Shown in pieces: positions 38,103 to 60,700 of a stretch of DNA of 64,000 nucleotides. The position numbers and the translations under genes were made by a program. How positions within the stretch are numbered: position 1 is the first letter of the stretch; each line of letters opens with the position of its first letter. The notes under the pieces were generated by a model that had not been told where the DNA came from, made no database searches, and saw only the letters and a program-made list of their open reading frames with translations. Source of the stretch: Sporobolomyces roseus (Eukaryota > Basidiomycota > Microbotryomycetes > Sporidiobolales > Sporidiobolaceae); assembly GCA_016617785.1 (NCBI GenBank), contig JADILM010000001.1:4588001-4652000 (forward strand), given 5' to 3'.

Positions 38103-40903
38103 CTACCACTCATCAATTCGGTTCCACCCCTCTTCCCTCTCCCTCACTTCCCTCGCAATCTGTTCCCTCTCAATCTGATTCCAACCGTTCCTCGCCCATC
38201 GATCTTCTCTTCTCGATACCTGCCTCGAAGCAGAATCATCTCGATGGGGTCGTACAGCGACGGGTTGGAAGAGTTGAGGTCGATTCGAAAGAGTGAAAGC
38301 TGGAGATGAGGGAGGAGGAGCTCGGTTATAGGAAGTTTCGTGGAAACGAGAAGTGGAAGCTCGAGGCTGATCAGGGATCGGCTGTCGAGGAAGAGGTACC
38401 CTGGAAGATCGAGGGGAGCGTAGAATCGGAGTATCTTCACGCCAGTGACGAGGGTCGGGTTTAGCTGGATCTGGTGAAGATTGAGGAGGAGGCGATTCTG
38501 GAGAAGGGAGTCTCTTGCGAGTTCTTGTGGAGTGTCGAAAGTGACGAGATGTACGAGAGTGGCGGCCAGGACTGGGAGAGTATTGTCGAGGTGAAGGACT
38601 TTGAGAGCGTTTGCGTTCGGATCTTGTCCTCTTTTTGATTCTTGCGTGTTGTTCAGCTTCATCCTCCTCCTCCTCGCGGCGTCTACTTGATCGTGTTGAG
38701 TCTCGTACTCTGTTGCTGTCGTGCTCCCTCAAACGAGAACGACTCCTCGATCTTTTGTTCGATCTCCTCCTCGTTTCGTCTCGATCAACACCCCTTGAGC
38801 GTACCTTCCTTGTTACCGCTTCCCCTTCATCCCTCCTCTCACTTGCTACACCGACGAAGCGACTCTGACCCCTCTTGACCCTCCTAACCCTGATCAACCG
38901 ATCCCCGACCTGAATTCCTTCAAAATCCCTCTCGACAATCTTCGCAGCTTTCTCCCCTTTCACCTCCAACCTAACCTGTACCATCTCCCCAGTATCTTCC
39001 AACGTCAAGCTCTCCCAGAACATCAAAGTACCTTTCAACATTCCCTCTACCTCGCTCACTCTCGTGTTCCTCCCAAAACCCTCGAGCACTAATCCAACAA
39101 TCTTATTCTTTTCCCCCCTCTCCGCAAACTTCGGTTCGTTCTGCCACTCTTCAAACCCCCTCACTTGTTCTGCCGCACTAGTTCGATCAACTTGGTCTCG
39201 AGCTACTGTCAATCTCACTGCCCATTCACTCCCACCTCGTTCTAAAGGGATTCCTCCTTTCTCTCGGACTCGTCGATTGATCTCTCCATTCTCTCAGAGC
39301 TCGCGTGAGACTAGGATGAAGCCGAATGCGGGCGTACGATAAGTGTGAAGGGAATGGGAGTGGAGGGTGACAGGTGGAGAGAGGGAAGAGAAATAGGAGA
39401 CGAGAGCTGAGTCAGGAAGGTGAGGGGGGAGGGAGAGGTAGAGCTTGATCAGTTGTGGTTGGGAGGTCGAGGAGAAGGAGTTACGAGCGGGAGGAAGGAA
39501 GCGGGAGGAAGTGGAGACTGGGTGAGATAGAGTAGGAAAGGGTTCATAGCGTTCAGAGGAGATTAGCGTAGGATTTCTGTGTCGAGGTGGAGAAAGGGAA
39601 CGTTGTCGATGCTGGGACGAGTCAAGGTAGGTAGAAGGAGAATGTCGCGAATGAGGCGAACCTGCGAAAACAACAAGAAAACGTTTAAAAAGCGTGATCA
39701 TTTGTCGCGAACGCTCAAAGATAACTCACCAGCTCTACTCTGATTCCCCCGAGCGTCGTTCATACTCCTCAAGTTCGAGCTGATGAGCTGATTCCTCGCC
39801 TCAGAGAGTTTTATACCCCAACTCCTCATCCCTTGCAGCCCAAACTCCATTTCTCCTCTCCTCCTGAGCCTTCTCTCAATCTCTCCACTCTCCCAAAGAT
39901 CTCGTTCGACAACTATGAATCCCATCGCAGCTCGCTGAGAGGTCGAGAGATGTTGTTCGTAAATTTCGAGAGGTGGTGAGAGGGAATTGAGATAGTTTGT
40001 GAAGGTCGAAGAGGGGAGATTGGTAGGGAGGCATAGGTGAAGTCTGATCAGTGAAGGTGTGGATGAAGAGGGTTGGGGAGGACGAGCGGGAGGGAGAAAG
40101 CGTGAGGTGTGAGAAGAGGAAGCTGGAGGAGAGAGAGGAGGGAGGGAGGGTTCATTGCGTCGAGTAGGGATAGGCGATGGACTTCTTGGTCGTGGCGATG
40201 ATGATCTTTGTCGTCGTTGCCATGGGCTTGCGATGTATGATGAGGGAGATTGTCGAGGACGAGGCGAATCTGAGGAACCCGAACTCGGCACCGTCAGCCT
40301 GACACCTCCTGATATGTTGAGGATTGGGACACTCACTGGATTCCCTCCTTCTTCTCCCAGTATCACTTTCGCTCCTCCGCGATCGAGCTCCCCCTATTGC
40401 CAAATCCTCGTTCGAACATCCAATCTCCACTTCATCTTGACTCTCACCATAATCAAGCTCCATCTCCTCACTACCACTCCTCGACCTGTCCCTTCCATCG
40501 CTGCGTCCACCCCTCGAGATCTTGAATACAGAGCTAGACAGAGTCGTATCTGGTGATTCATCGTAAACTGAATTTGAGCGAGGTGAGAGCGACATTTCTG
40601 TTTGATGCTGAGTCTGGGAGGCGGTTGACTGCGAAGGGCGACGACGAGGAGAGGAAGTGGAGGAAGAGAGAGGAGTAAGAGAGGAAGAACGAGAATTAGG
40701 TTGTTTGGAATTGTTGCGAAGAGGAGAATCTACGAAGACCAAAGTTTGGGGATCAGCTTCTTGTCCCTGAGTTCGTACAGGGTCAGTAGCAAAGACTCAC
40801 TGGATTGCGATCTTGCGCTGTGAATGCTGTAGATTTCAGTATTGCCTCCCTTTCGATCCGAATCTTCGACGATTTCTCCCGCTTCCCCAGCAGTCACTCT
40901 CAT
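38103..40903 (-). CDS. Family B paralogue B1 (RRM-like, duplicated exon, RS tail) with one in-frame TGA
   Basis: Exons 40903-40801, 40729-40337, 40269-39730, 39661-38103, all joined by phase-1 introns. The full frame is 864 codons with a single TGA at codon 468 (39294-39296); stopping there gives 467 aa. Exon 3 and the start of exon 4 are two copies of one unit: an arginine/serine start, SRFLPPAR, then an RRM-like part (LIRLHLCLPTNLP versus LIKLYLSLPPHLP). In unit 1 and in B2 and B3 this part ends with a D/ELWExGEI motif; in unit 2 the Trp codon is TGA. Downstream come a second RRM-like domain (GLVLEGFGRNTRVSEVEGML) and a long RS domain, all open. Probable RNA-binding SR-like protein or its recent pseudogene. 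Confidence 0.6.
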
Positions 40904-41451: not shown

Positions 41452-43474
41452 TCACCTCCCTCCCTCGAACTCAGATTCTACTCTCGAATCCCTCTCCATT
41501 CCCAGATCCTTGACGTCCTTTTTCCATCCGTAGTGAATAGCAGGACCATACGTCGAGGTGCTCGAGAGATATTGAGAAGAAGAAGATCGGTTAGAGGAGT
41601 TCCTCTGGGTTTCGAAAGTCCGAGGTCGTGTTTGATCATGATGACGAGGTTCTTTCGGAGGTTCGAGGGAGTGTGCGGGTGAGGAACGCTGTTGAGGAGC
41701 GATTTGAGAGAGGAGGGGTTCAGGTGAGGGACTACGAATACGTTTCGACTTGGGATTCCTATGGTGTCGAGGAGAAGGAGGTGAGAAGGAACGTTCCCTT
41801 CTACGACGAGGTGGTGAGCGAGATCTTGATCGAGAGCGTCGACTATGGCGGGAACGACGTTTGGGTGAAGGAGAGCGGGAGGAAGAAGAGGAGGAAAGGG
41901 ATCGATGTCGTCTCTTGTGAGTTCGGCGATGACGACGAGGGCTTCGTGAACGTGAGCGAGAGTAGGAATCGTGTCGTCGAGAGCGATGAGGGTGGCGAGA
42001 GCGTCGGCGACGAGGCGATCTTGAGCGGGATCTTGACCTTGACCTTGAGTGATAACGATCTCGTTTCTTTTCCTTGTCTCTCTTCCTACTCCTTCTCTCA
42101 TTTCGTTCCCCTTCTTCATCGTACCTCTTCGATCTCTTTCGACGACTGTCCCTTTCTTGCGTTCTCCTGTAACTCCTACGATCCTTCGAATATGAACGAT
42201 TCCTTGATTTCGACCTTGACTCCCTCCTTCTAGATCTCGACCTTCCTCGACTCGCACTCCTCTCACGTCCTCTTCCCCTCTCCTTCGTTTCGTTCGATTC
42301 CTCCTTGATTCCTAAAGTTTCCTCCTTCAAGCGAGATTGATCCATCCTCTGAGTAGTTTCCGACCCTTCTCTTCTCCCTCACTTCCCAAAAGAGCTCTCC
42401 TCCCTCTCCTCTCCGCCCAAATCCGGTTCAATGGCGACTCTGATCGTCCTCCCATCTTCCCCCAACCTCCAACCTCCCAATGAATTCACCACTCCCATCG
42501 CCGCTTTCTCACCATGAATCAAAAACTCAAACTTCCTCCCCCCTTCGAGAACCCTGAACGATCTCCAATACTTCAAGAATTGTCCGAGTAAACCCTGAAC
42601 CGATTCTTGACTCGTACCTTTCTCGAATCCTTCAAGAGAGATTCTCACCCAATCATTACTTTCATTCATAATCCCACTCTCAAACTCCCCTTTCCGATCT
42701 CCCATGCCCAAATTAACATCCCCATTCTTCTTCGTTGTTGAGAGATTAACTTCTAGATCTCCTTGCCTAGCAACCCTCAATTTGATTTCCCAATCCCTTT
42801 GAAACCCTCTACCAGTATCTAATCCTTTACCCCAAGTCCTCTTGAAGATCTCACCACTCTCCCATAACTCCCTCTCAACGACGATTAGTCCAACGGTAGA
42901 ATAAACCTCGAGAGAATAAAGCTTGATGGGTCGATTCAAGGAAGCGAAGTAATCGGCGAGGAGTTCGGGGTCGAGGCGTGGAGGGACTGGGAGGTAGAGT
43001 TTGATTAGTTTTGGAGGAGAGGGTGGATGAGAAGTGGTTGAGGAAGGGAGTGGAGGACGAGGTGGATTCGGAGATTGTGGTCGAGGCGAGATGGATAGTG
43101 TATGGTAGCTGTAATGCGAAGAAGGGGAGCGGGGGGATACAGGAGAAGAAGAGGAACGTCGTCGTCGATGAGTGCGGGAAGCGGAAGAAGGCGAGTGATC
43201 TGAGAAGTGGGTTCGAAAGGATTCTTTTTGAGGGGATTAGCTCATTCTGGACGATTGAATGATAAAAGGGTTGCTCACCCCTCCTACTTTCTTTAGCTGC
43301 GTAGTTCTCGTTCTCCTCCAATGACGTCGTTGCGGATTCGTCAATCTCGCCCTCCTCTCTAACTCTTCCTCTTTCCGAGCGTTTCTCGTGCAACTGATTC
43401 TCACTCGATCCATTCCTTTCCCTTTCCCTTTCCTCTTTCCCATTCCTATCGTCTACACTCTCCGCTTGATACAT
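41452..43474 (-). CDS. Family B paralogue B2 (RRM-like plus RS tail) split by one in-frame TGA
   Basis: Exon 1 43474-43279 and exon 2 from 43199 share a phase-1 intron. Exon 2 encodes RRM1 (LIKLYLPVPPRLDPELLADY ... ERELWESGEI) and RRM2 (WVRISLEGFEKGTSQESV), then reaches TGA at 42379-42381 (codon 339). The same frame then runs open for more than 300 further codons, through ATG 42345, as a dense RS domain to TAG at 41452. B3 has RRMs and RS tail in one frame, so B2 looks like that gene with one nonsense codon, or two products (338 aa RRM protein, 297 aa RS protein). No in-frame intron of normal size removes the TGA. Confidence 0.6.
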
Positions 43475-47939: not shown

Positions 47940-50155
47940 ATGGATATGGATAGGTATGAGGGTATTAATCAAAGAGGAAGGAGCAAGTTGTCGAGATTCA
48001 GGGTGCGAAGGGATCCGAGTGTCGAATCGGGAGAACGACAAGTCAGGAATGATTTCGAAGGATCGTTGAGGAACGAAAGTCAGGACGGATTGAGGGATGG
48101 GTCAGCTCGTAAGTATCTCTTCATTACTGCTTCGCGTTGCATGCCTAGAAACCGAAGGAGCTCAATCTCACGTCTGAGGATGCAGCTTCACTTCCTTGCA
48201 AACCGAATCATTCCCGTTCTCCTTCAATCGCCCTCCCCAATTCCTCGTACCCTCAATGCCTCGACTACTCACTCCCTCGCTCTCGCTCCCCAGCCTCGCC
48301 TCGTCCAAGTCGACCTCTTTCTCCTTCTCCCATTCCGCTTCGTTCTCACTCTCTACCAGCTACTCCTCCTCTTTACAACTGCACTTCTACTCCTCGTCCT
48401 TTCGACCGAGTCAAGCTCTACCTACCTTTACCCTCTCATCTCCCCTCCGGAATTCTCTCCGATTACTTCGAATCCCTTTTCCCACCGATCAAGGTCTATT
48501 CACTCAAACTACATGCCACCAAGACGACCGCGCTCGCTTTCGTTGTCGTTGATCGAGAGTTATGGGAGAATGGGGAGATCGAGAAGAGGGTTCAAAGGAG
48601 TGAGGGATTGTGGAGTCGTGGGAAAGAATGGATCGTTCGATTAAGCTTAGCGAAAGGTGAACACTCCCAGAATGGGTTAACGAACCTTGATCGATCAGGT
48701 GGCAAGTTGGAATCGGAGAGGAAGGATCACGGGTGGGTAAGGATTGAATTGACGGGGTTTCCAATGGGAACGAAGAGACAAAGTGTTGAAGTTTTGTTGG
48801 GGCGTCACCTCAAGTTTTGGAACCGATTTGAGATGAATGAAGAAAGGGGATGGGCAAGGTTTGAAGTGAAAGGAATGAAGCCGGCTGGGGTTGTCGAGAG
48901 GAACTTGGAGGGATTACGAACGGGCAGCGAAGGGGAAATCGTTAGGGTCAGGATCGAGCGAGACGAGGAGAGGTTGGCAGGAGATGGGAAGTTATCGAGC
49001 TTGAACGGAGAAGAGGATGGGAGAGATTGTGAAAGGATGCAGGAGATCAGAGCGAAAACTTCTTCGCCGGATAGCTATCAACGAGCTCAATCTCCCAAGG
49101 TCTCTGAACGAGAGGGATCAGTAGGAGTGGAGGAAAAGCCTAGGAGACGCGAGACGAGTCATCGTCGAGAAAGAGGGAGATCCAGGTCAAGATCAACATC
49201 GTCGGAATGGTCAAATTCGAGGTCAAGTTCAAGGGAGTCGTATGATCGCGGAAGAAGGAGGAGAGGCAGAGATCGTCGTCGTAAAGAGTCGAGGAATGAT
49301 GGATTGGAAGATGAAGAGGGTCGAGAACAGCGAAGGAGCAGGAGGAAGAGAGGGATCAAGAAACAAAGCTCCCATCGGACACCTTCATGTTCACTCTCAC
49401 GCTCACGCTCGCCTCTTCGTGGAAACTACCGTCACCACAGAAGATACCACTCTAGATCTCGTTCCCGCTCGACAAGCCCTCGTCATCGTCGACACCGAAA
49501 AACCTCTCGCCGTTCTCCATCTTCTTCACCCATCCGCTCGCGCGCAACTAGACAACGTTCTCGCTACGACAGTCGCTCAAGATCGAGCTCTACCTCTCCC
49601 TCTCCCCGTCGTCGAGAGAGACACGACAAACGTTCGATCGCACCTCTTTCGCTTCAACGACACAACGAAACGAACCATCACTCTCTTGGCCCTTCTAGTC
49701 AATACCCCCCATCAGCTCAGACTCCTCACTACGACGAACGATACGGACATCCGATCTCAATGCACCCGAATCTCGGTCATTTCCAACAATTCCCTCCTCC
49801 TCCTCCTCCTCCTCACTACCAGCCTCATCCGACCTTCACCTCTACTCCTCCCGTTCCTCCACCCTTTAACTACTTCTCTCAACCGACTCCCCTCGCTTCT
49901 TACCCCATACAACCCAATTATATCCAACCTCGACTCCCTCCCAATCAGAGCGTCTATACTCGCTTCCCATCCGCTCCCTCTCCAAATTTGACAATCTATA
50001 CTCCCACTACACATTATGAACGATCTCAAATTGCAGAGAATACGATCAGACAGATCACCGAGAACTTGGAGAGAAACAGGGAAAGGAATCGATTGGCAGC
50101 GAGGGAGTTGAGGGGTCAAGGAGAAGGACGATACTCGATGGGATACAGGGAGTAA
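47940..50155 (+). CDS. Family B paralogue B3 (two RRM-like domains, RS domain), intact
   Basis: Exons 47940-48108 and 48186-50155 give 712 aa with one phase-1 intron, no internal stop. RRM1 near 132-200 (RVKLYLPLPSHLPSGILSDY ... RELWENGEIEKRVQ), RRM2 near 238-320 (WVRIELTGFPMGTKRQSV ... GEIVRVRIER). Residues about 360-560 are a dense RS domain with SRSRS runs; then a proline-rich part with a poly-Pro run and tyrosines, and a charged helix (QITENLERNRERNRLAAREL). Architecture is that of an SR-type splicing factor, but the RRMs lack textbook RNP motifs. It is the reference copy for judging B1 and B2. Confidence 0.8.
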
Positions 50156-51803: not shown

Positions 51804-53506
51804 ATGCTCTTCAAGTCTGTCGCCATCCTTTCGGTTGCCGCTCTCGCCGTCGCCGCTCCTCTTCAACAAGAGGTGAGTGTTCCTATAATCTCCAGTTGAC
51901 GCGATAAGCACTGACTCGGAATTTCCTCTTCATTCAGCGTCGTTCGATCGATCTCTCTAAGCGAGGATCCAACATCGTTGACGCCGACGTCAATGCGCAA
52001 GTAGGTAAATCCACCTCCGCAGACGTCGCAGCTACCGTATCAAAGGCTGGAGAAATCACAGCTGGTGAGTCGATTCTTTCCTTCTTTCTTCCTGAGCTTC
52101 GCTGATCCCTTCTCTCTCCTTTGGCCTCTTCTAGGAGTTGACGCTCAAGTTGGCAAGCTCCTTGGTCTCGACCTTGACGTATGTTCACCTCCAGCTCTTT
52201 CGTTCCCTCCCTTCTTTCGCAAAACTGACGATTCGTGCGTTGTCTCCTTCCTAGTTGGACGTCGGATTAGGACGACTCCTTCGCGGTCTTCTCGGTGGTC
52301 TCTTCCACCACAAGCGAGACGAGATCCTCTCCATCGAAGACGTGAGTATCTCTTCTCTCGATTCAACTTTTCGGGATCGGTCGCTGATCTTTCTTCTTCC
52401 TTCAATAGCTCGTCAAGCGCTCGGGTGACATTCTCAACGCCGATATCGATGCGACCGTCGGGCAAAAGACCAAGGCTTCTGTTGACGCCGTTCTTACGAA
52501 ATCTGGGGAGCTCACTGCCGGTTAGTCCGCCTTTCCTCCCTCCCTCCCTCCCTCTCGTTCTGACATATCGCTAACCTCCGTGCTACAGATGTGGACGCGA
52601 AGGTTGGTCGCCTTTTGGGCTTGAACGTCGATGTGCGCTATCTTTTTCTCCCTCCCTTCCCCCTTTCTCCTCCTTCCCCCTTTCCCCTCCTTCGCCCTAT
52701 CCCACACATCGCCATTCCACACATCGCCATTCCACACATCGCCATTCCACACATCGCCTCCCCCATGCTTGAGCGGGATCGCTGATGCTCTCTCTCCTCG
52801 ACAGGCCGATGTTGGACTCGGTAAACTTTTGCGCGGATTGTTGGGAGGACTCTTCCACCACAAGCGTGACGACATTACTCTCCTCTCCGATGTAGAGCTC
52901 TCTCACTTGCTCTCCGCCAACGTTGATGTATGTCGTTCTTCCTTTCTACTAGATTGTTCGATCGCGACGAAGCTGACTTTTCTTTTCCTCGAAACAGCTT
53001 CGTGTCGGTCTCTCAAAGCTCCTTCACTCTCTCCTCAAGGTCGATGTCGACGTTTCCAAGCGCTCCTTGATCAACTCGGACACGGACGCGGCTCTCAACC
53101 AGAATGGACTCGGACTTGGATCGCTCACGACTGTTGGAAACGATATTGGTGCCGCCGTTGGAGCGATCGTTACTCCTGAGTCAACTGCTGCCGGAGTTAA
53201 GGGTCAAGTTGGACAGGTCCAAACCGACACGGAGGCACTCCTCAACAAATCTGGACTTGCCCTCGGTTCTTACGTAAAGGACGATAAATCTACCCTCGGT
53301 GTTGGCTCCATTATCAACAAGGAGGGAACCAACACTGCTCTCATTGGATCCCTCGGTCAGCTCCTTGGCGTCAAGGTCGATGCCACCACGACTCCTATCC
53401 TCAAGGGTCTCCTCCGAGGCGTAAGTCTCCCTTTTCTTCTTTCGCTATCATCCTTGACAAGCTTATTGACATCTCTGCTCCTCCATAGCTCCTCGGCAAG
53501 AACTAA
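51804..53506 (+). CDS. Secreted repeat precursor with Kex2-type KR sites (KEP-like)
   Basis: Nine exons: 51804-51872, 51938-52064, 52135-52178, 52255-52341, 52409-52520, 52589-52632, 52805-52927, 52998-53420, 53489-53506; 348 aa. Residues 1-18 are a signal peptide (MLFKSVAILSVAALAVAA). Dibasic sites: RR 24-25 and KR at 31-32, 100-101, 112-113, 181-182 and 223-224. Two long modules (about 33-109 and 114-189) each hold VDAxVGxLLGLxxD followed by xDVGLGxLLRGLLGGLFHHKR; a third, diverged unit (203-224) and a fourth near the end (LGQLLGVKVD ... LKGLLRGLLGKN) follow. The GLLRGLLGGLF core is amphipathic and weakly cationic. No cysteines. Processing by Kex2 in the secretory path is inferred; function unknown (surface peptide, repellent-like or antimicrobial are possibilities). 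Confidence 0.75.
52702..52758 (+). repeat. 15-bp minisatellite in intron 6 of the secreted precursor
   Basis: Unit CCACACATCGCCATT repeated three times plus a 12-base partial copy, all identical, inside intron 52633-52804. This intron is therefore longer (172 bp) than the others of the gene. Confidence 0.9.
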
Positions 53507-57700: not shown

Positions 57701-60700
57701 CGAAAACCACCTCGTCGAGGAAGTTTGACGAGCTTGTTGAATCTCGGAGGAGAAAGTTCGAGTAGACCTACGATTCAAAAGAAGAAGTCTTTGTTGGGAA
57801 TGAGCTTGCCGGCGGGAAGGAAGAGTGATGATATGTTAGTGAGAGGGTTTGGGAAGGAACGAGAACAGAGGGAGAATTGGGTGGGATCGGTCAGCGATAA
57901 TGGACATGGAGATTCATCGTATCGGGAGAGGAGGAGCTTTGATCTCTTGACTGATCGTGAAGCGATTCCGAGACGACCTAGTACCGATAACCTCCTTGTG
58001 AGTTTCTGAACTTTTCTCCTCGCTTTACGCCCGTTCAATTGGGACTGACTTATCCCGGATCACTCTCTGCAGACCTTCGCATCGGCCAAGCTGTCAAAGA
58101 TGGCTTTATCAGACGAGAACGGCGATCCCGTCACTCCTACTCCCGCTACTCCAACAGCGAACGGTTTCCATCCCTCAGGAGACATTTCATCCGGACAATC
58201 GACTCCTTCAGTCAATACTCCCGACAACACAGCTTCCATCATTTCGACTGCTCAACTTGTCAAACGATCAGACGGTTCACCGACGGTGGGACTTCAAGAC
58301 GCCGAATCGCCTCTCTTCTCTCGCACCGCAGCTCCTACGCTCGTTCGATCAGACAGTCTCCGTTCGACTCCTCGTCAATCAGCTTCAGCTCCTCCATTCG
58401 CAGGTGCAGGGATGCAGCAGAGAACATCGCAGGACTCGTCTTCGAGATCACCTGCACCTCAACCTTGGAAGAAGAGGGGAAAGATTCCGGATTCTGGACT
58501 AGGCAGCGACGCTAGCATGAGCTCGGCTTGGCTTGACGTCGAAGATGCTCTCGGATTGTGAGTTTCTTCTTCCTCTCTAATGTATTTCGCAAGAGTTCGC
58601 TGATGTTTTGCGAGTGTACTCAGATACTCGAAAGCTGTTCAAGATAATCATCCGGATCGCTCGCTCGTTCTAGCGAATACGCTGCTGCCGTTCTTGAAGA
58701 AAGAAGAGGACAATCCTGCGACGAGGACGAATGAGAGATTGGCGAAGAGACAACGAGACATTCTTTTCGGCTGGTGAGCTCACCCTCTTCAAGCGCACTT
58801 TCTCTCGGATAAGCTGACTGATTCTCGTCGATTAGGTTGAACACGTTGACTACTGAATTGAAAGAGATGCAACCTGCTCACCGAGGAGCTTGTCTCGAAA
58901 GTGTCGGAGCGATCGCAGAGAGGTAAGTCTAGCATCTAGCATATTGATGCGGTTCTGTCGCTCACTCCTTTCTTTGCATGTAGCCACTTCCTCTCCGCTT
59001 CGACACTCGAGAACGATCTCGCTGGTCAATCTCGATATCGAACGGCTCTTGTCACGATTCTCCAATTCGCCGTCGACAAGCTCAACGAGAAAGGTGAGCG
59101 CTCTTTCCTCAGTAAGCAACACGGAGCCTGTTTACTGACGCTGTTCGCTCACAGCCGTCTACGCAAACACTCTCGTCTTCTCCGGTCGTGTTTTCGCTCT
59201 CGCTTTCTGGCGTATCGAAGGTGTAGGACTCAAGCTGCTGCGAGCTCTACCTCAAGTCAAGCGAGCTGGTCTGAAACGGATTCTCGAAGAAGCTGGAGTA
59301 GATGAACAGTGAGTCACATCTTTGCTCTAGCTTGGCTTTGACAGCTAACGTCGACAATGTCTCTCACAGCCGGTTACCTCCCGTCGATCTCGAAGCTTTC
59401 CCGTCGCATCTATCGTCACTCTGCCTTCAGAATTTCCGTGCCTACACTTCGCTACTCCTCCCTCTCAGTTCGATGCCTACTCTCCCAGATGATAAATTCC
59501 TCATCAAGGACGGTGATATCTCGGTCGAGATGAGTGGCAACTGGTACGCTCTTTATCCTCTTCTGCAGTAGCACTTGTGCTGACTCTTTCTCCCTATTCA
59601 GGCTCATTCGATGGACTGCCTCCGATTCCGATCTTCCCTTCGCTTTCTACCGAGCTTACCATAAACAACTCGCTTCCTACTTGATCCCCATCGAAGCTAG
59701 AGAAGAGATCCTCGATCAAGAACCGATGTCACCTTCAACCTTGATCACCGCTCCCGGTTTCCTCTTCCTCGCCGCCTCCCTTCTCGAAAAGAGTGACGCC
59801 CTCGTTCATCGCAACCTCCGTTCAGTGACTTCAATGGGACCTCACAACAGCAATTTCAACACGAATGATTCGGCCAATCTATCATTCGGAGCTAAACCTA
59901 AAGTACTCGAACTCGCACATCGACGACTTGTTCAGACCTTACTCGAAATCGTTGGAGGCTCACCGCCAGCTCCAGGAAGCGAGGAGGAGTCGTCCGATAC
60001 TGCTTCTCGTCGTCATGCATTCCGTCGAATGATGCAAGTTTGGATCAAGGCCTGCGTCAAACGAACTTCGATGTGGGATACTCGAAGCGTCTTCATCCTC
60101 CTCGACTTGCTCGAAGGTCTCATCTTTGCTCTCACCTATCCTTCCGAGAATAGTCGATCGTCGAGTGATGAAGACCCTGCACCCCCGAAACCTGATCAAA
60201 GGTTCTTCGACATGTTGGGATTCGAATTCGTTTTCCCTGTCATCAAGAAGATTCTTCTTGAAGCGGACAACACCGTTACTCTCATGAGAACTATTTCCTT
60301 CCTCTATGCTCATTTCGAAGTGTAAGTCTGCAATGTCTTCGCTCTCGTTTGAATAAGCTGACTCTCGTCTCGAACAGGTTCACATTGCGCATCGAGGATC
60401 GAACCGCTCTCTGCGAAGGTATCATTCTCGACGAAGCCGTCTTTACTCGTCTCTTCCTCTCTTACAATCAAGGAACTCGAGGATTCTGGTGAGAAAGGGA
60501 ACTACTCTCTGCATGAAGACAATTTACTGACTCGCGCACTTCCTGCCCTTACAGGATTCGATTGCTCGTTTGGCGACTATCTCGACTTGGTGTCATCGCA
60601 AAAGAGCAGAACCCGAACCTACCACCCGATGAAGGTATCCTCGCTCTGTTCGGTCTCCTCAACGTCCGACTCGAGGCAATTCGAAAACGACATGATCAAC

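What the first reader, a model, noticed from the sequence alone, without database searches (positions are those of the whole stretch)
51804..53506. Secreted precursor built from repeated amphipathic units flanked by KR sites
The conceptual protein has a signal peptide, five KR sites and near-identical blocks around GLGxLLRGLLGGLFHHKR, each ending in KR. This is the layout of Kex2-processed repeat proteins (alpha-factor, Rep1, candidalysin-type precursors) but the peptide is none that I recognise. The released pieces would be glycine/leucine-rich and amphipathic, so a surface-active, signalling or antimicrobial role is conceivable.
Basis: partly seen in the sequence, partly recalled or inferred. 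Interest (0 to 1): 0.8.

Follow-up and report, generated by a model that had tools for sequence, protein, structure and literature searches.

The report
Yeast secreted precursor with cleavable modules
A Sporobolomyces-like yeast encodes a secreted protein built like beads on a string, each bead ending at the same protease cutting mark, and related yeasts keep those marks; the beads may coat the cell surface, but neither cutting nor function has been tested.

Summary
Nine exons (51804-53506, +) splice into a 348-residue, cysteine-free, apparently secreted precursor with five KR sites (0.92 expected in shuffles) and one RR. Nine full-length relatives in seven named Sporobolomyces species are all "hypothetical" or "uncharacterized"; no Pfam or PDB match. 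Cut at dibasic sites, the ten proteins give the same recurring pieces: 28 M modules (~67 aa), seven D pieces (~42 aa), 21 short pieces (7-12 aa) and a C-terminal piece. M modules end in KR in 27 of 28 (RR in one), while basic positions inside them drift between K, R and other residues. A kexin gene is present. So: probably a Kex2-processed repeat precursor of an undescribed family. Best functional guess, by analogy only: surface-active coat modules working like Ustilago repellents.

The parts
51804..51872 (+). exon 1: start codon, signal-like peptide (about residues 1-18) and start of pro-segment
   Evidence: splice model; hydrophobic peak
51938..52064 (+). exon 2: RR site (51938-51943), SIDLSKR with KR (51959-51964), first half of module M1
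52135..52178 (+). exon 3: middle of M1 (44 nt, phase 1 to 0)
   Evidence: same length and phase as exon 6
52255..52341 (+). exon 4: Gly/Leu tail of M1, KR (52312-52317), start of acidic spacer
52409..52520 (+). exon 5: end of spacer with KR (52415-52420), first half of module M2
52589..52632 (+). exon 6: middle of M2 (44 nt, phase 1 to 0)
52805..52927 (+). exon 7: Gly/Leu tail of M2, KR (52862-52867), first half of D piece
52998..53420 (+). exon 8: end of D piece with KR (53058-53063), most of the C-terminal piece
53489..53506 (+). exon 9: last residues LLGKN and stop
51965..52317 (+). module M1 (69 aa; span includes introns)
   Evidence: 44 of 67 aligned residues identical to M2, third codon positions 21 of 67
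52318..52420 (+). 12-aa acidic spacer DEILSIEDLVKR between two KR sites (span includes an intron)
   Evidence: counterparts in other species
52421..52867 (+). module M2 (69 aa; span includes introns)
52868..53063 (+). D piece (42 aa; span includes an intron), degenerate half-module
   Evidence: M-profile match 26.4 bits against 13.5 for the best of 900 shuffled pieces
53064..53503 (+). C-terminal piece (124 aa; span includes an intron), ends in a Gly/Leu tail without KR
   Evidence: eight beta strands predicted in two relatives at pLDDT about 56-72

Best explanation
This is a secreted multi-module precursor. Steps: (1) a signal peptide takes it into the ER (inferred from sequence); (2) the genome's kexin cuts after RR/KR at module boundaries and a Kex1-type carboxypeptidase would trim the basic residues (inferred from the near-fixed KR boundaries; Kex1 was not looked for); (3) this releases two ~67-residue M modules, a ~40-residue D piece, short acidic spacers and a 124-residue C-terminal piece, the larger pieces ending in a Leu-rich tail unit (predicted); (4) the cysteine-free modules coat or self-assemble on the yeast surface and lower interfacial tension or aid attachment, working like Ustilago repellents (guess by analogy). 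I put step 2 at about 0.85 and step 4 at about 0.4.
For: Recurring pieces between dibasic sites in ten proteins, M lengths 62-69; M boundary KR 27 of 28 and RR 1 of 28, against R11/K11/N3/S3 and K17/R10/H1 at the two basic tail positions; L, I, V or F two places before the dibasic at 41 of 67 sites (that Kex2 favours such a P4 residue is recalled). Kexin exons with S8 and P domains. M1 and M2 share intron positions and phases and 44 of 67 residues, while synonymous sites are saturated (pS 0.83, pN 0.27): old duplicates whose protein sequence was kept. Codon adaptation 0.536 against 0.306-0.460 for seven other window ORFs and 0.384/0.430 for two kexin exons, consistent with strong expression. 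Rep1 has a similar plan (ten peptides of 35-53 aa plus one of 228 aa, surface-active amyloid-like fibrils; PMC4617103, passages). No hydrophobin domain found (no working positive control, so weak).
Against: No proteomic or RNA evidence. Structure models are poor (mean pLDDT 37.4 and 37.7, pTM 0.31); only the strand region of the C piece reaches about 56-72, and one of five modelled M modules shows no strands. Tail amphipathicity is not above composition shuffles. The site after SIDLS is KR in only six of ten proteins (RR and KK in one each, QR and ER in two), so that site is not indispensable, though the RR seven residues upstream is kept in ten of ten. A 12-residue period in the C piece was not found (lag 12 z -2.2; lags 11, 17, 24 z about 5). 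The C-piece tail of the window protein matches the M profile only at 11.3 bits, below the best shuffle at 13.5. No sequence kinship to Rep1 was shown.
Confidence: 0.45

Rival explanations
1. Same Kex2 processing, but the products are membrane-active or antimicrobial peptides used against competing microbes; the Gly/Leu tail inserts into membranes and the acidic part masks it.
For: Tails of M modules carry net +1 to +2 in 27 of 28 (the other was cut too long by my pattern) and many Leu; acidic spacers lie between modules.
Against: Whole M modules are acidic (net -1 to -8), unlike most cationic antimicrobial peptides (recalled); no dibasic site separates the tail from the rest of the module.
Confidence: 0.18
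2. Not cleaved in the mature state, or only the pro-segment removed: an intact modular cell-wall or slime protein whose KR boundaries are linkers.
For: Module order is kept among relatives; beta-prone C piece; cleavage not shown.
Against: The boundary dipeptide is KR in 27 of 28 M modules, whereas a mere need for charge would let K and R interchange, as they do inside the module; many KR sites lie 10-12 residues apart around spacers.
Confidence: 0.15
3. A signalling precursor in which the short conserved acidic spacers (such as DLSSEELY) or the 7-residue pro-peptide are the active peptides and the modules are carriers.
For: A 10-residue spacer of the type xxxSEELYKR, or one close variant, occurs in seven of ten proteins.
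Against: Absent from the window protein and P0001, which have a 12-residue spacer of another type, and from P0008; no Ste13 signature at 67 sites; basidiomycete mating pheromones are not made this way (PMC6339444, passages).
Confidence: 0.08
4. Gene-model artefact: the exons are mis-joined and the repeats do not form one protein.
For: No transcript was examined.
Against: S. roseus protein collinear across the eight junctions and eight further annotated relatives; M1 and M2 share intron positions and phases.
Confidence: 0.02

Closest known systems
Ustilago maydis repellents (Rep1)
   Same: Repeats described as amphipathic and separated by Kex2 sites, several small products and one larger product (PMC4617103, passages)
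   Different: Here 2-3 modules of 62-69 aa plus a D piece in six of ten proteins, not twelve repeats of 34-55 aa; short acidic spacers; no detected sequence kinship (Rep1 itself was not aligned); activity untested
Kex2-processed repeat proteins (KEPs) in general
   Same: Secretory precursor whose repeats are separated by dibasic sites (PMC6339444 section 24; PMC7329392 section 13)
   Different: The window copy has only two full repeats plus a degenerate half-repeat; eight of ten family proteins have three
Ascomycete alpha-pheromone precursors
   Same: KR-delimited repeats
   Different: Modules of ~67 aa rather than 9-24 aa (range from PMC6339444); no XA/XP signature at 67 sites
Candidalysin precursor (Ece1)
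   Same: Named among KEP-derived peptides in PMC9769878 (passage); segments ending in KR (recalled)
   Different: Not compared by sequence; here the modules are longer and acidic; no lytic activity known
Hydrophobins
   Same: Proposed surface role only
   Different: No cysteine after residue 18 in any of the ten proteins

Membership tests
KEP (Le Marquer 2019; Umemura 2020) | N-terminal signal peptide | tested here: inconclusive
   hydrophobic N terminus by Kyte-Doolittle; SignalP not available
KEP (Le Marquer 2019; Umemura 2020) | At least four fragments after in silico cutting at KR/RR | tested here: met
   seven fragments after the signal part, six without the C-terminal one
KEP (Le Marquer 2019; Umemura 2020) | At least three similar repeats between dibasic sites (Umemura: each at least 8 aa, none over 100 aa) | tested here: inconclusive
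   window: two M plus a D piece matching half of the M profile at 26.4 bits; eight of ten family proteins have three M. The published pipelines were not rerun
KEP (Le Marquer 2019; Umemura 2020) | Actual cleavage by Kex2 | not testable with these tools
   kexin gene present; no peptide data
Ustilago repellents (Rep1) | Kex2-separated amphipathic repeats of 34-55 aa | tested here: inconclusive
   M modules are larger, 62-69 aa, but D pieces are 41-44 aa; helical moment of the tails not above shuffles in 27 of 28 M tails
Ustilago repellents (Rep1) | Surface-active amyloid-like fibrils | not testable with these tools
   needs purified peptide
Ustilago repellents (Rep1) | Sequence kinship to Rep1 | tested here: inconclusive
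   three protein searches returned Sporobolomyces proteins and two unnamed ENA fragments only, but each scored only about 8000 candidates; Rep1 was not aligned directly
Alpha-type pheromone precursor | Ste13 signature XA/XP after the Kex2 site | tested here: not met
   0 of 67 sites in ten proteins
Hydrophobin | Conserved cysteine pattern (eight, recalled) | tested here: not met
   no cysteine after residue 18 in any of ten proteins

The most novel reading that the evidence does not exclude
Sporobolomyces evolved, independently of the smut repellents and without hydrophobins, its own polyprotein of self-assembling surface modules: beta-rich units with amphipathic tails, released by kexin and spaced by acidic peptides, forming a water-repellent or adhesive coat on yeast cells or ballistospores living on leaves.
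Probability: 0.3. Interest if true: 0.65.

Novelty: new member of a known kind. Interest (0 to 1): 0.45.

Why it matters
It gives a concrete, conserved and testable candidate for how Sporobolomyces yeasts, core members of the wheat-leaf yeast community in one survey (PMC12866564, passages), modify surfaces, in a genome where no hydrophobin domain was found (without a positive control). A second, unrelated repellent-like system would suggest that Kex2-cut repeat precursors are a recurrent route to fungal surface coats. If the modules prove antimicrobial instead, the family would matter for biocontrol by leaf yeasts.

Tried and rejected

Literature: 'Sporobolomyces' does not occur in the held main text of either KEP survey; their supplements were not opened (no look-ups allowed), so a listing of the S. 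roseus protein there is not excluded. Eight paper searches were run. Those on Sporobolomyces with Kex2 (2 of 2 papers listed), hydrophobin (11 of 11), secretome (15 of 35), biosurfactant (10 of 70), surface-activity terms (10 of 32) and strain names (1 of 1) listed no title on this family; I looked into two of those papers only. Papers seen: PMC6339444 abstract, passages, sections 6 and 24; PMC7329392 passages and section 13; PMC9769878, PMC4617103, PMC4161775 and PMC12866564 passages only.

Rows handled before counting: two ENA fragments (P0009, P0010) were left out of family counts; the 7-residue leader was stripped from P0004 and P0007 M1 (QR/ER instead of KR) before the module alignment; P0006 has a shortened C piece, and P0011, marked partial, has a C piece followed after an extra KR by a truncated second one; the pattern cut the tail of one M module (P0005 M3) and of the window C piece far too long.

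Full report
What is there. The window comes from a 22.4 Mb, 15-contig genome. By its relatives it is a Sporobolomyces-like basidiomycete yeast: the closest named protein is from S. roseus JCM5353, 76% identical over 97%; the genus is an inference. A nine-exon gene at 51804-53506 encodes 348 residues; the eight introns have GT..AG ends, seven of them 65-76 nt and one 172 nt. The two module copies have the same intron positions and phases: exons 3 and 6 are both 44 nt and run from phase 1 to phase 0. No transcript was examined.

The repeat. Cutting the precursor at dibasic sites gives a signal/pro part, SIDLSKR, M1 (69 aa), a 12-aa acidic spacer, M2 (69 aa), D (42 aa) and a 124-aa C-terminal piece. 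M1 and M2 share 44 of 67 aligned residues but only 21 of 67 third codon positions; pS is 0.83 (saturated) and pN 0.27. They are old duplicates whose protein sequence has been kept. With a profile of the 28 M modules, six of seven D pieces score above the best of 900 shuffled pieces (13.5 bits; window D 26.4). The end of the C piece aligns to the same profile region in ten of ten proteins, but only four score above that shuffle (S. blumeae 28.2, S. carnicolor 21.1, the two S. pararoseus 16.0 and 13.8), and the window copy does not (11.3). So the larger pieces appear to end in the same tail unit; for the window C piece this rests on its relatives.

The family. Three protein searches found nine full-length relatives in seven named Sporobolomyces species, plus two ENA fragments 97-98% identical over 34% of the query. 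Each search scored only about 8000 candidates, so relatives elsewhere may have been missed. S. salmoneus has two copies with nearby locus tags, both on a contig of 169,762 bases, presumably the same one; in the window genome one was found. The ten proteins hold 28 M modules (two in the window and P0001, three in each of the other eight), seven D pieces in six proteins, and 21 short pieces. The pieces are defined by the cuts; what is not built in is that they come out homologous and of near-constant length. Exceptions: P0004 and P0007 have QR/ER at the site after the 7-residue leader, P0006 has a short C piece, and P0011 (marked partial) has an extra KR after its C piece followed by a truncated copy.

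Why the KR sites look functional. Each protein has 5-6 KR against 0.57-0.93 expected in shuffles. The M boundary is KR in 27 of 28 modules and RR in one; the two basic tail positions inside the module read R11/K11/N3/S3 and K17/R10/H1. Related sequences are not independent, but the contrast lies within the same sequences. At 41 of 67 dibasic sites the residue two places upstream is L, I, V or F. Against this, the site after the leader is KR in only six of ten proteins, while the RR before it is kept in ten of ten. A kexin with S8 and P-domain exons is present on contig C6; a transmembrane-looking stretch follows in the same frame (by eye). The XA/XP signature of pheromone-type processing is absent (0 of 67).

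What the pieces look like. M pieces have net charge -1 to -8 and their tails +1 to +2 in 27 of 28. No protein has cysteine after residue 18. Tails are Leu/Gly-rich, but their helical moment is not above shuffles of the same composition (0.146 and 0.183 in the window; one of 28 below 0.05). Models of two relatives have low confidence. Both place eight strands in the C piece (pLDDT about 56-72); four of five M modules show short strands followed by a helix at pLDDT below 40, the fifth no strands. Fold comparison gave only generic sheet matches. Codon adaptation to histone/actin segments is 0.536 against 0.306-0.460 for seven other window ORFs, consistent with high expression.

Interpretation. 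The layout fits Kex2-processed repeat proteins. One survey reports that basidiomycete yeast-like fungi produce longer putative peptides than the 9-24-aa class usual in Dikarya (PMC6339444 section 6). Among characterised members the closest in working plan is Ustilago Rep1, whose peptides of 35-53 aa and one product of 228 aa form surface-active amyloid-like fibrils (PMC4617103 passages). I propose a similar coat role, by analogy only. No hydrophobin domain was found, but the tool warns that nothing rang anywhere, so absence is not shown. I do not file the gene as a repellent: kinship and fibrils are unshown and the main repeat is larger. Membership in KEP is strong in layout but open on repeat number in the window copy, on the formal signal-peptide call and on actual cleavage.

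Verdict. Real, conserved, probably processed, function open: a new family within a known kind of precursor.

Noticed in passing
window 39698-40393 (-), 42379-43236 (-), 48149-50155 (+): Three ORFs share by eye a motif like KLYLPxP..DYFxSLxxPIKxYSL..VVxRELWExGEI, with RS-rich stretches in or next to two of them; a possible local family of SR-type proteins. No Pfam hit at E <= 0.001 for the two scanned.
   Followed up: no
window 52699-52758: A 15-bp minisatellite (about four copies of ATTCCACACATCGCC) lies inside intron 6 and accounts for part of that intron's unusual length of 172 nt.
   Followed up: no
P0006 and P0007 (S. salmoneus JCM6883): Two paralogues with locus tags 005855 and 005859: one lacks the D piece and has a shortened C piece, the other has both, suggesting a local duplication and two subtypes in the genus.
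   Followed up: partly
P0011 (S. ruberrimus JCM16303, partial): M1 and M2 are nearly identical, and the C piece is followed after a KR by a second, truncated copy, hinting at recent duplication or an assembly effect.
   Followed up: no
window 59534-60325 (+): ORF with a DUF1765 match (51.5 bits), function unknown.
   Followed up: no
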